From contig JAKDLG010000003.1 in NCBI GenBank assembly GCA_030452985.1, positions 1 to 64,000 on the forward strand: DNA of 64,000 nucleotides, read 5' to 3'. The translations under genes and the position numbers were made by a program. Below the pieces are notes generated by a model. It did no database searches. It had not been told where the DNA came from and saw only the letters and a program-made list of their open reading frames with translations. The DNA is from Humibacillus sp. (GTDB lineage: Bacteria > Actinomycetota > Actinomycetes > Actinomycetales > Dermatophilaceae). Within the stretch, counting starts at the first letter, position 1. Every line of letters begins with the position of its first letter. Positions 44,867-50,519 of the stretch are shown one piece after another.

Positions 44867-45140
44867 ACCGACAGGCTAGAACCGATTGCGGACGATCGCG
44901 GCCCGGGAAGCTTCGGCGTCAACCGGTGCGGAGGCACGCTGGCTTGAGCCTGTGCTGCGCCGCAAGGTCGACCGCTGTATGTCTCAGCCGGAGCGCGACG
45001 GGTGTCTGTATGTCGAACCCACCCGAACCCAGGAGGACAACTTGGCCCGTCTACAGCCGTTGCCGATTACCGGCGTCTTCCGCGTGATGGTGAAACGCTA
45101 AAGCCAGAAGCTGCTCGGAGAGGTGCCCGAACCATTGGGG

Positions 45141-46133
45141 GGTGTACTTTCACAACCAGCCCGTGCTGAAGGATGGTGGCAACCGGTGGAGGCAGCGGAG
45201 ATGCTGAGGAGTCGTTCGTACGCTTCGGCGGTGCGCAATTCGAGGAGTTTAGTGAGGGCTCGTTGATCTCGTCGGCGATGGCGTCGAGGTAGGGCTGGTG
45301 GTCGGTGATGTCCGTTGGCTTAGGCAGGTACCGGCGGATGAGGAGGATACGGTTCTCGTTGCTGCCTCGTTCCCAGGGCGAGTGGGGCGGGAAGTAGAAC
45401 GGCATCTTCGTGGCCGATGTGGGCGTGCTGGCCCATCTCCGAGCCGTGGTCGCAGGTGATCGAGCGGCGGAACATCGCTGTCAACGCGGTCGTGGCCTCG
45501 ATGACCGCGTCGGCGAGGCCGTCGCTGGGCTTGCCCAGCGGCAACGCGAGGATGCACGTGAAGCCAGTGACCCGCTCGACCAGGATCGCGGCCGTGCTGG
45601 AACTGGTCCGCCAGCCCTTGCTGATGATGAGGTCGCCTTCTGAGTCGACGGGGACCTTCCGGCCCAGGACGTCCTCGGGTCGGTCTTCGCTGCTGACCAT
45701 CCCCACGACCGGGCCGCTCTGACACTGCCCCAACGGTTTTCGCGGCCCGCGCCGGGTCCGGCCGGAGTCAAGGCGGATCCCCAGCTCTTTCAGGTGCCCG
45801 GGCATGGCGTACACGTAGGAATAGACCGCTTCATGAGACACGGCCCGAGCCTGCCCGTCCGGGGACCCGGGCGCCACTTCCAACCGGTCCGCCGCGCCGC
45901 CCGGCAGTCCGCGTGGACCACCGGTACCCCCTGGTCAGCGTGCTGTTGCGGCGGACCTCTCTCGAGATCACCGACAGCGCCCGGCCCAGGTCGGTCGCGA
46001 TCGCCCGGATGGACCAGCCCGCCTTCAACCCTGCAGAGATCTCCCAACGGTCAACGGCCGTCAACATCATTCGCGCCGCCACTTTCGTCCTGCCTCACCT
46101 CGCCTAAATGACCGAGGCCGTTGCTACGACACC
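45141..46133 (-). pseudogene. Degenerate IS30-family insertion sequence (fragmented transposase)
   Basis: HTH EISAGLKAGWSIRAIATDLGRALSVISREVRRN, core DLIISKGWRTSSSTAAILVERVTGFTCILALPLGK, ITCDHGSEMGQHAHI, YFPPHSPWERGSNENRILLIRRYLPKPTDIT spread over three frames; element limits tentative. Confidence 0.75.
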
Positions 46134-46853: not shown

Positions 46854-47708
46854 GTGACTATCAGCAGCGTTACCAGCGTAGAATTTAATGAGTGGCTGCC
46901 ACCCTCTTCGATTGTGCTATTGATGCTAGGCGCCCTTCTTCTACTCGCGATAGCAGTCGGTCTCGCCGTACAACGAAGGCAACGCAGTCGAGCACAGAAC
47001 AGGCCAATAGCGGAACGTGAGAAGATACGACTGATTATAATGCTTACTTTGAGAAAACGGCACAAACGATTCGCAGGAAAATTGCAAACCAAGAGCATCC
47101 AAGAGGCTAAAAAGATCGGCCTGCAGATAAGCGCTGGCGACTTCGAAGATGCAATCGAGTTCCTTGACGGGAAGGGTCTCATAAAAGAACAGACGTCAGA
47201 ATGGATTCCGCAGTCGCTCAGGATGAATCGAGTTATTCGCCTAACCGCCGCCGGGGCTGACGAAGTTGACCGTGGCTTTCAAGATCAAGATCGACCCACC
47301 GAACATCTTATGGCTCACAAAATTCTAGTCACAGGCACAGGAGCAATCGTGAACTATACCCAAGGCGACAATAGCCCGATCATCAGCAATTCACCCAACT
47401 CAGCCGCAGGAAAGCACATCTCGTATAATGGGCCTGAGTGCTCGATAGACACGGCCGAAGTAGCGAAATTCGTCCAAGAGTACCGTACTCTACTCAGGGC
47501 CATGGAAGTTAACGCGGGTGTGAGTCAAAAGGTAGCCGCACAGTTACAAGTGATCGACGCTGAGGTTCAAAGCGACAAAATGGATGAAGCCGAAGTTCGC
47601 AGAGCAGGTAAGAGCGCCATCGATTTCGCAGGAAAGGTCGGCATTGGGGTTGCTTCGAAGGCTGCCTTCGAAGCTTTGGCGAGTACTTGGCATCATTTCT
47701 TCAACTAA
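46854..47708 (+). CDS. Hypothetical membrane-anchored protein with wHTH-like middle
   Basis: 284 aa, N-terminal TM (SIVLLMLGALLLLAIAVGLAV), EREKIRLIIMLTLRKRH..., GTGAIVNYTQGDNSPIISNS linker, helical C-term; AT-rich relative to flanks. Confidence 0.7.
   Translation: MTISSVTSVEFNEWLPPSSIVLLMLGALLLLAIAVGLAVQRRQRSRAQNRPIAEREKIRLIIMLTLRKRHKRFAGKLQTKSIQEAKKIGLQISAGDFEDAIEFLDGKGLIKEQTSEWIPQSLRMNRVIRLTAAGADEVDRGFQDQDRPTEHLMAHKILVTGTGAIVNYTQGDNSPIISNSPNSAAGKHISYNGPECSIDTAEVAKFVQEYRTLLRAMEVNAGVSQKVAAQLQVIDAEVQSDKMDEAEVRRAGKSAIDFAGKVGIGVASKAAFEALASTWHHFFN
47652..47674. repeat. Perfect 11-bp inverted repeat sharing the TTCGAA core
   Basis: GCTTCGAAGGC-t-GCCTTCGAAGC. Confidence 0.7.
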
Positions 47709-47869
47709 ACATGTATATGCGGCTTGTGTCATCCCGAGCTAAGGTGGCTCTTCAAACTTAACCGGGCAGGTGCGTGGGCCGCGTCGTTGACTTGAGGGGC
47801 CCGTGACCTCGGTGATCATGGCTGTTGTCTACGCAGTCTTGGTCACGAAGGTGAGGTCACGGGCGTGGT

Positions 47870-48190
47870 TTAGCCTACGCAATTACAGGAAGAACAGGTC
47901 ATCAGCGAGGACGCCACGAAGTTCCTCGGCCTGGACGGGTTCGCCCTGATCCGGGTCCAGCTCGAACCGGACGGCGCCCGGGTGGTGCATGTGGTCACCG
48001 CCGACGAGAGCGCCGCAGCCTGCCCGTCCTGTGGGGTCATCTCGACCGCGCGGAAGAGCTCGGCGACCACCCACCCGAGGGACGTGGCCTACGGGCCGGA
48101 CCCGGTCCGGTTGGTGTGGCACAAGAGCCGGTGGCGATGTCGTGAGTCGCTCTGTGAGCGGGGGTCGTTCACCGAGTCGCTGCCGCAGGG
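47870..48190 (+). pseudogene. Truncated ISL3-family transposase (N-terminal zinc-finger region)
   Basis: FLGLDGFALIRVQLEPDGARVVHVVTADESAAACPSCGVISTARKSSATTHPRDVAYGPDPVRLVWHKSRWRCRESLCERGSFTESLPQ; no catalytic domain follows. Confidence 0.65.
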
Positions 48191-48396
48191 CCCGACCCGG
48201 TGCAACCCGGCCAACCAACGACGGCGGATACGGTGGCTCTGCACCCGCCAAAACCGGCGGGTGTCAGCCAGGGAAAACCGCGTTGCCCGGTTAAGTTCGA
48301 GAGCCGCCGGTTTTCAGGGGGCACCTATGAACCGGGTCTATTCCACCCTTGGATCTGGGCCGGCGACCGCCCGCTATCGTGGGCATGCGCACGATG

Positions 48397-49320
48397 CTAC
48401 GCCGCGATCGCCGCTAGGAGCCGTGTGCGGTAGTGGCGCATCCAAGGCTCGCCAAAGTCCAGCGTCTCCAGGCAGGTTTTAACAACTGTATCGGCCCGAA
48501 CGTTCCGCTCTGGCGCCGCCAAGTTGGGATCGCATCGCACTAGGTGCCAAACATAGTGCATTACCCACTTCCCACGCACCAACCGCTCAGGCTTGCCGCA
48601 ACTGAGAGTTTCGGCGGCCTTATCAATCACGGCCTCAAAAGTCTCCGCAAGTCCAGTCTTCGCAACCGCTGCGCCGATTTTCAGGCGAAGTTCATCCGCA
48701 GCCTCTTTCCGCAAGGGGCCGTAACCTTCCGAATTGATACGCGAGTGCTTGGAGTGTTTTACTTCGCACCCGACGCCACACAGATCGGCAGCAATGCCGA
48801 AACTGATCCATTCGAACCAGAGTGACGCGAGCTCTCCGGCCAAATCCGCGCCTGATCTTAAAGCTAAAGCGCATTCTCTGACGGGAAGGGAATAGGCGGA
48901 AGACGCCGCCCTAACAACATCGCCATTGATGAGGATTTCCGCCTCAGCATCCATAGCATTGGTGTAGATTACGTGTGGACTTACTACTTCTCGACCTGCA
49001 AGAGAGTCATAATCTCGATCTAGCCCCATAACTATGTTCCGCGAGCCTGCCGTTGGCGATTGCCGTAACTTCTCGACCTCATCCAAGGCGCGAAATACTG
49101 CTAGTACGTGGTCCTTGCCGCCGGCCACAACCCCATTCACTTCAATCGTTTCCGCCAAACGGACCACCACTCCCATCACCTGCACCTCAGGCAGGCTATT
49201 TGCACATCGCTCAAAAAATGGGCCATCGTGATTTGATCCTTCAACGATTATCCATAAGGCATGCTTTGACAACTTCACCCTGGCAGCAAACGCAAGAACA
49301 TTGCGTCGCAATTTCGTCAT
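48397..49320 (-). CDS. DUF4435/TOPRIM-like protein, AriB-like effector of a PARIS-like system
   Basis: ALWIIVEGSNHDGPFFERC (VEG) and RNIVMGLDRDYDSL (DxD); ATG start overlaps stop of AAA gene (ATGA). Confidence 0.6.
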   Translation of the reverse strand: MTKLRRNVLAFAARVKLSKHALWIIVEGSNHDGPFFERCANSLPEVQVMGVVVRLAETIEVNGVVAGGKDHVLAVFRALDEVEKLRQSPTAGSRNIVMGLDRDYDSLAGREVVSPHVIYTNAMDAEAEILINGDVVRAASSAYSLPVRECALALRSGADLAGELASLWFEWISFGIAADLCGVGCEVKHSKHSRINSEGYGPLRKEAADELRLKIGAAVAKTGLAETFEAVIDKAAETLSCGKPERLVRGKWVMHYVWHLVRCDPNLAAPERNVRADTVVKTCLETLDFGEPWMRHYRTRLLAAIAA

Positions 49321-50519
49321 AGTTCGAACACGAAGTCGTCGTTGATTTCGGCCATGATTTCCGGTGAATGAGTCGCTAATAGTAGCTGGCATGCGGGATT
49401 AACCGTCTTCATGGACTTGACAAGTACTTGCTGCCAATCAACGTGCATGCTCAATTCGGGCTCATCGATCATGACCGTATCTTCTTCAGCGGCTAGCACC
49501 TCCAACATCAAGCGGAGAAGTTGCTTCTCTCCCGATGAGAGCGATCGCAACGGAATGGTCGCGCCCTCCAGCTCAACGGAAAGGCCGGCTCGCCCCAGAG
49601 CGCTGGTTCCGAGTGAGAGCTTCTTTCCTCCTGAGTAAAGTGACTCGACCACTTTCTGGAACTCGGTCTGCGGATTAAGCGCCTCTGAGACGTCGGCCGT
49701 AACTTCTTGGATTGTCCGCACTACGCCACGCAAGTCGGATTCATTACCATACCGCCTAAGGAATTCCGGCTTGCCGAATCGAAGAGAGATTCGCTGTTCC
49801 CGAAGAAAATTCTCAACGAGCACGTAGGCCTGCTCCGCGGACACCTCTGGCGCGCCACCGGCGCTGATACCCGCGCCCGCGCCTCCCCCGAACAGGATCG
49901 CAAGGATGGCTGCCAAGCCTTGTTGCTGAATGGCTCGAATGCGACCGAGCGCCTCGTTGTTGTAAGCCTGCCAACGCTGTCGTACCTGATGAGCGAAATC
50001 TGTATCCAAGAAGTCATCGTCGATGGTTCCTTGAATACGTCCAGGTCGGTTGGAGATTTGCGTAAGCCGCGATATGGGCATATATGAGTGCCTGTACGGG
50101 GCGTCCTTACGACTGCTCCGGCTTGGCAGTCGTCCCGGCACTAGCGGCTTGGAAAGTTGTCCCTCGAGTAAGATTGTGTCCCAGGCCTTTTGCTCCCGGA
50201 CCTCTTGCCACATCCCCTCACCCATCGGCTCCAATTGCATGCCGTCTTCATCATCAGCGGCGATCGACTCTTTGTCTAGCGTCCGTCGAAGTTTCGCCCC
50301 AAACTGACTGCTCCAGAATATCACCTCCGCAGACTCGAAAGGAACGTACTTTAAAGCATCCACGTCATTACGCATTGCAGCATGCAGAATCTTTAACAGG
50401 GAAGTCTTTCCAGATCCGTTCAACCCCCAGAAGATGTTGACTTGCCGGTCGAGCGTCCGACTGACGTCAGCGCTCCTCCCTGCAAGCCCCGTTACCCTAA
50501 AATACTCGATATAGGCCAA
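49317..50519 (-). CDS. AAA/ABC-type ATPase, AriA-like sensor of a PARIS-like system
   Basis: Walker A WGLNGSGKTSLLK, signature LSSGEKQLLRL, Walker B TVMIDEPELSMH, ATHSPEI; TTG start at 50519 preceded by AAGGAAGGG. Confidence 0.7.
   Translation of the reverse strand: MAYIEYFRVTGLAGRSADVSRTLDRQVNIFWGLNGSGKTSLLKILHAAMRNDVDALKYVPFESAEVIFWSSQFGAKLRRTLDKESIAADDEDGMQLEPMGEGMWQEVREQKAWDTILLEGQLSKPLVPGRLPSRSSRKDAPYRHSYMPISRLTQISNRPGRIQGTIDDDFLDTDFAHQVRQRWQAYNNEALGRIRAIQQQGLAAILAILFGGGAGAGISAGGAPEVSAEQAYVLVENFLREQRISLRFGKPEFLRRYGNESDLRGVVRTIQEVTADVSEALNPQTEFQKVVESLYSGGKKLSLGTSALGRAGLSVELEGATIPLRSLSSGEKQLLRLMLEVLAAEEDTVMIDEPELSMHVDWQQVLVKSMKTVNPACQLLLATHSPEIMAEINDDFVFEL

What the first reader, a model, noticed from the sequence alone, without database searches (positions are those of the whole stretch)
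48397..50519. PARIS-like anti-phage pair (AAA ATPase + DUF4435/TOPRIM-like effector) in an IS-littered island
Sequence shows a minus-strand two-gene unit with a 4-bp ATGA overlap. The first gene encodes an ABC/AAA15-type ATPase (GLNGSGKTSLLK; LSSGEKQLLRL; VMIDEPELSMH). The second has the VEG...DxD signature expected of a TOPRIM-like DUF4435 protein. AAA15 followed by DUF4435 is the known architecture of PARIS (AriA/AriB). Context supports mobile defence DNA: lower GC, adjacent truncated ISL3 and IS30 transposases. An actinobacterial version could have a different trigger or target than the characterised enterobacterial ones.
Basis: partly seen in the sequence, partly recalled or inferred. Interest (0 to 1): 0.75.

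Follow-up and report, generated by a model that had tools for sequence, protein, structure and literature searches.

The report
Divergent actinobacterial PARIS-type phage-defence pair
Two overlapping bacterial genes encode an ATP-driven sensor and a nuclease-like partner that look like a distant actinobacterial branch of the known PARIS anti-phage system, too diverged in the second gene for standard detection rules to catch.

Summary
Window 48397-50519 (minus strand) carries two intact genes joined by a 4-bp ATGA overlap. The ATPase is an AriA-type ABC ATPase: best PADLOC model AriA 3.3e-34, best PDB relative E. coli AriA 4.6e-16. The partner fails the Pfam DUF4435 cut-off (12 of 27 bits), so the published PARIS detection rule misses it. 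A profile of seven actinobacterial homologues nevertheless matches twelve DUF4435-type proteins encoded next to AriA-like ATPases (hhalign 98.4%, E 7.6e-15, score 107.7; best of 40 column shuffles 16.4). It does not match OLD TOPRIM (score 20.8). The TOPRIM residues E27, D101-x-D103 and E126 are kept. All seven loci keep both genes and the 4-bp overlap at effector identities of only 22-35%, and most lie beside recombinase, transposase or mobile-element genes.

Best reading: a diverged actinobacterial PARIS-type (AriAB) abortive-infection module, with an ATPase that senses a phage protein and releases a TOPRIM nuclease. Trigger and target are not shown. The C-terminal half of the effector has no significant match to AriB, so substrate specificity may differ. 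Confidence is high for homology, moderate for tRNA cleavage. This is a new variant of a known kind.

The parts
49317..50519 (-). AriA-like ABC/AAA15-21 ATPase (putative sensor), 400 aa, TTG start
   Evidence: AAA_21 71.4 bits, AAA_15 64.8 bits; PADLOC AriA PDLC04164 3.3e-34; PDB AriA 8ux9_B 4.6e-16; Walker A, signature, Walker B and H-loop residues invariant in the six-member alignment
48397..49320 (-). AriB/DUF4435-like TOPRIM protein (putative effector nuclease), 307 aa
   Evidence: hhalign of the 7-member family against 12 AriB-type partners: 98.4%, E 7.6e-15; E27, G67-G68-K69, D101, D103, E126, G250 invariant in seven members
49317..49320 (-). ATGA stop/start overlap coupling the two genes
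   Evidence: sequence; 4-bp overlap in all seven loci
47746..48306 (+). ISL3-type remnant with both inverted-repeat ends, internally deleted, just beyond the effector stop
   Evidence: inverted repeat pair I6; Zn_ribbon_ISL3
45067..46111 (-). broken IS30-like transposase at the left side of the low-GC island
   Evidence: fragmented frames; HTH_38 5.6e-12; IS30 assignment from sequence and general knowledge

Best explanation
A two-gene PARIS-type (AriAB-like) anti-phage module of a diverged actinobacterial branch. Homology, gene pairing, catalytic motifs and mobile context are shown here. The mechanism is inferred from E. coli PARIS: the ABC ATPase oligomerises and holds the TOPRIM partner inactive; a phage protein binds the ATPase and releases the partner; the partner dimerises and cuts RNA (most likely host tRNA) through the metal site E27/D101/D103 (with E126), halting translation before the phage matures.
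For: ATPase: AriA is the best family in PADLOC and the best solved relative, and the tree groups it with AriA-like ATPases and separates it from OLD ATPases. Partner: profile match to the partners of AriA-like ATPases at E 7.6e-15, against shuffles with a best score of 16.4 and a weak match to OLD TOPRIM. The prototype-type AriB group matches the same twelve-member set about as strongly (2.3e-12), and a 48% relative of E. coli AriB also fails the Pfam DUF4435 model, so the Pfam miss is not disqualifying. Catalytic residues line up with those of AriB. The pair with a 4-bp overlap is kept in seven genomes, mostly beside integrase, resolvase, FtsK-type transfer or transposase genes. Of 13 plasmid or phage relatives of the ATPase whose downstream gene could be read, 12 carry a DUF4435/AriB-like protein there. 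Mechanism of E. coli AriA/AriB: PMC9122126, PMC12409363.
Against: The effector is under the Pfam threshold and weak in PADLOC. Its direct profile match to the B185-type AriB group is weak (E 0.003, 10%). Homology is significant only over residues 1-145; the C-terminal half gives nothing beyond an RGK/RGH motif. AlphaFold models gave no Foldseek match. The AriA-like set was collected by similarity to the window ATPase, and the one Septu PtuA included falls unresolved inside that group. No functional data.
Confidence: 0.82

Rival explanations
1. A sister system to PARIS: same sensor logic (AriA-like ABC ATPase plus TOPRIM nuclease), but with a different effector target (another RNA, or DNA), set by the unrelated-looking C-terminal half. 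This overlaps with the best explanation and differs from it only in target and trigger.
For: C-terminal half does not match AriB; effector evolves faster than the ATPase (22-35% against 42-49% identity); one-residue longer loop between VEG and the following Asp.
Against: AriB proteins themselves differ greatly outside the TOPRIM core, so divergence there is expected; the (R/K)GK motif is shared with DUF4435 proteins in the alignment.
Confidence: 0.3
2. An OLD/Gabija-like or RloAB-like ATPase-TOPRIM nuclease pair that attacks DNA.
For: All are ABC ATPases with TOPRIM-type nucleases; an RloB-like protein appears among sub-threshold fold hits.
Against: Tree separates the ATPase from OLD ATPases (99/98); effector against OLD TOPRIM only score 20.8, 0.7%; no RloB Pfam match.
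Confidence: 0.08
3. A decayed or neutral remnant in an IS-littered island.
For: Flanking IS copies are broken; single copy, patchy distribution.
Against: Both frames are full length, the family-invariant motifs are intact and the overlap is kept.
Confidence: 0.06

Closest known systems
PARIS (AriA/AriB, E. coli B185)
   Same: AriA-like ABC ATPase followed by a TOPRIM DUF4435-like gene, compact two-gene cassette, mobile context, conserved E...DxD/E residues
   Different: effector only a remote homologue (hhalign E 0.003 to the B185-type group), GGK in place of the NNRxK stretch near K60/K64, DRD in place of DRE, one-residue longer loop after VEG, shorter ATPase (400 against 464 aa), unrelated-looking effector C-terminus
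DUF4435-type AriB partners (E. coli P2-like phage vB_EcoM-813R9, Nostoc plasmid and others)
   Same: VEG..D, GG(K), DxD, the Glu of the YsxEN motif, RGH/RGK landmarks; profile E 7.6e-15
   Different: window clade fails the Pfam DUF4435 model and has a distinct C-terminal half
OLD / Gabija GajA
   Same: ABC ATPase plus TOPRIM logic
   Different: fused single protein, separate ATPase clade, TOPRIM profile does not match significantly
Septu PtuA
   Same: related ABC ATPase (PADLOC 1.8e-22)
   Different: partner is an HNH nuclease (PtuB) rather than TOPRIM; AriA models score higher

Membership tests
PARIS (AriAB) | AAA_15/AAA_21 ABC ATPase above Pfam cut-off | tested here: met
   64.8 bits (cut-off 32.1) and 71.4 bits (cut-off 27)
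PARIS (AriAB) | Adjacent DUF4435 gene at or above 27 bits (published detection rule, PMC9122126) | tested here: not met
   12 bits. This is a search threshold rather than a biological feature; a 48% relative of prototype AriB also misses it
PARIS (AriAB) | Partner homologous to AriB/DUF4435 by profile comparison | tested here: met
   98.4%, E 7.6e-15; controls at or below score 20.8
PARIS (AriAB) | TOPRIM catalytic residues (Glu, DxD) | tested here: met
   E27, D101, D103 invariant in seven members and aligned with AriB
PARIS (AriAB) | ATPase falls with AriA rather than OLD | tested here: met
   separation from Septu PtuA unresolved (one long row)
PARIS (AriAB) | tRNA-gripping lysines K60/K64 of AriB | tested here: inconclusive
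   segment aligned ambiguously; one invariant Lys69 in GGK
PARIS (AriAB) | TOPRIM fold of the effector | tested here: inconclusive
   homologue model pLDDT 80 with alternating strands and helices, but no Foldseek match; window model pLDDT 57
PARIS (AriAB) | Triggered by a phage anti-restriction or other protein; tRNA cleavage; AriA hexamer holding AriB | not testable with these tools
   needs experiment
OLD/Gabija | OLD-like TOPRIM (PF20469) | tested here: not met
   no match anywhere in this genome; profile score 20.8
Septu (PtuAB) | HNH nuclease partner | tested here: not met
   partner has no HNH family match and matches AriB instead

The most novel reading that the evidence does not exclude
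The clade is a separate ABC-ATPase/TOPRIM immune system of Actinobacteria with its own phage trigger and its own RNA target, read by a C-terminal domain not seen in characterised AriB.
Probability: 0.3. Interest if true: 0.6.

Novelty: new variant of a known kind. Interest (0 to 1): 0.42.

Why it matters
PARIS was counted in about 5% of genomes with a DUF4435 threshold (PMC9122126). This clade shows that diverged AriB branches slip under that threshold, so the system is probably more widespread than counted. It also gives a natural test of whether trigger and tRNA specificity change between bacterial phyla.

Tried and rejected
Direct phmmer of the effector against PDB, and a 4-member profile: no relevant hit. 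tblastn of the effector in plasmids and phages, and IMG/VR scans: nothing. AlphaFold of the window effector from five sequences: pLDDT 57, meaningless fold matches. A homologue folded better (pLDDT 80) but Foldseek against PDB and viral models found nothing significant. Matching C-terminal halves: no signal beyond RGK/RGH. Viral scan for B185-type AriB: none. OLD-like, Septu-like and decayed-remnant readings were considered and ranked low. A target-site duplication around the ISL3 remnant was not seen by eye. No Rfam match in 44-52 kb. Promoter and terminator scans gave no more than shuffles.

Full report
Observation. The two minus-strand genes are real and intact: a 400-aa ATPase at 49317-50519 that starts at TTG behind a GGAAGG site, and a 307-aa partner at 48397-49320, joined by an ATGA overlap. 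The open frame is longer than in any of 200 shuffles, and GC is 0.55 against 0.68 for the window. To the left are an internally deleted ISL3-type element with both inverted repeats and a broken IS30-like transposase. To the right begins an ordinary catabolic cluster: TetR regulator, CoA-transferase III, AMP-binding ligase and enoyl-CoA hydratase.

ATPase. Pfam gives AAA_21 at 71.4 bits and AAA_15 at 64.8 bits. AriA is the best PADLOC model (3.3e-34, ahead of PtuA at 1.8e-22), and E. coli AriA is the best solved relative (4.6e-16). Of the plasmid and phage relatives fetched, 13 had a readable downstream gene; 12 carry a DUF4435/AriB-like gene there and one carries an HNH gene. In trees the window clade (100/99) groups with these AriA-like ATPases and is separated from OLD-type ATPases (97/96 and 99/98). 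The AriA-like set was collected by similarity to the query, and a single Septu PtuA row is unresolved inside it, so the boundary with Septu is less firm than the boundary with OLD.

Partner. Single-sequence searches are nearly blind: DUF4435 12 bits against a cut-off of 27, PADLOC AriB E 0.018, NCBIfam none, PDB none. Homologues were found in a same-order genome (G269), Dermabacter, Pedococcus, Brachybacterium and two Streptomyces-family genomes. Their alignment keeps E27, G28, D32, G67-G68-K69, D101, D103, E126 and G250. Against twelve AriB-type partners of AriA-like ATPases the profile comparison gives 98.4%, E 7.6e-15, score 107.7 over residues 1-145 or so. Forty column shuffles reach at most 16.4 and the reversed profile 13.6; OLD TOPRIM gives 20.8. 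The B185-type AriB group (the E. coli fragment shown, plus Pseudoalteromonas and Planktothrix) matches the same twelve-member set at 2.3e-12 but the window clade only at 0.003: both look like outlying branches of one family. The Pseudoalteromonas protein, 48% identical to the E. coli AriB fragment, also has no Pfam DUF4435 hit, so the Pfam threshold is not a fair test of membership.

Conservation and context. All seven loci keep ATPase then effector with a 4-bp overlap, although effectors are only 22-35% identical to the window protein. Neighbours include a tyrosine integrase and Prim-Pol (Streptomyces MH60), an FtsK/SpoIIIE-type gene of the kind used in transfer (Pedococcus), resolvases (Brachybacterium, G269) and an IS481-like transposase (the second Streptomyces-family genome, G1302). 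This is the usual company of defence genes. The distribution is sparse: two hits in 397 genomes sampled from the phylum and four in 396 from the order, each count including the window's own genome.

Mechanism. In E. coli the AriA hexamer sequesters AriB; phage proteins such as Ocr bind AriA and release AriB, which dimerises and cuts tRNA-Lys(UUU) and others in the anticodon stem (PMC9122126, PMC12409363). The same logic is the best inference here: the ATPase residues and the TOPRIM metal-site residues are all present. Not shown: complex formation, trigger, nuclease activity, target, or defence. The C-terminal half of the effector has no detectable match beyond an RGK/RGH motif, the VEG-to-Asp loop is one residue longer, and the lysines that grip tRNA in AriB have no clear equivalent. 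Target specificity could therefore differ.

Structure. The window protein folded poorly (pLDDT 57). The Streptomyces homologue folded at pLDDT 80 with strands and helices alternating as expected of a TOPRIM core, but Foldseek returned no significant match. Structure is neutral evidence.

Verdict. What it works like (PARIS) is better supported than strict functional membership, which needs the experiments listed.

Noticed in passing
window 46854-47708 (+): A 284-aa protein with an N-terminal membrane helix and a GDNSPIISNS stretch, GC 0.50, in the same low-GC island; only a weak PADLOC candidate match (PDC-M14B, E 0.0025). Possibly another defence or mobile gene.
   Followed up: partly
window 47746-48306: ISL3-type element of about 560 bp with both inverted repeats (TCAAACTTAACCGGGCA) and only the zinc-ribbon start of a transposase: an internally deleted remnant.
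   Followed up: partly
L009 634-2265: A single 543-aa protein with an ABC ATPase part and a DUF4435 match over the Pfam cut-off in a same-order genome: likely a fused AriAB, so ordinary PARIS also occurs in this order.
   Followed up: no
L021 2817-3686 (E. coli plasmid pDS26_129): Protein annotated 'hypothetical' downstream of an AriA-like ATPase, with VEG..D and DxD but no Pfam DUF4435 or PADLOC AriB hit: another diverged AriB-like branch.
   Followed up: partly
L046 and L047: Actinobacterial gene with a Cys-rich HNH-like start and a PtuA-like ABC ATPase fused in one frame of about 700 aa: perhaps a fused Septu-like protein.
   Followed up: no
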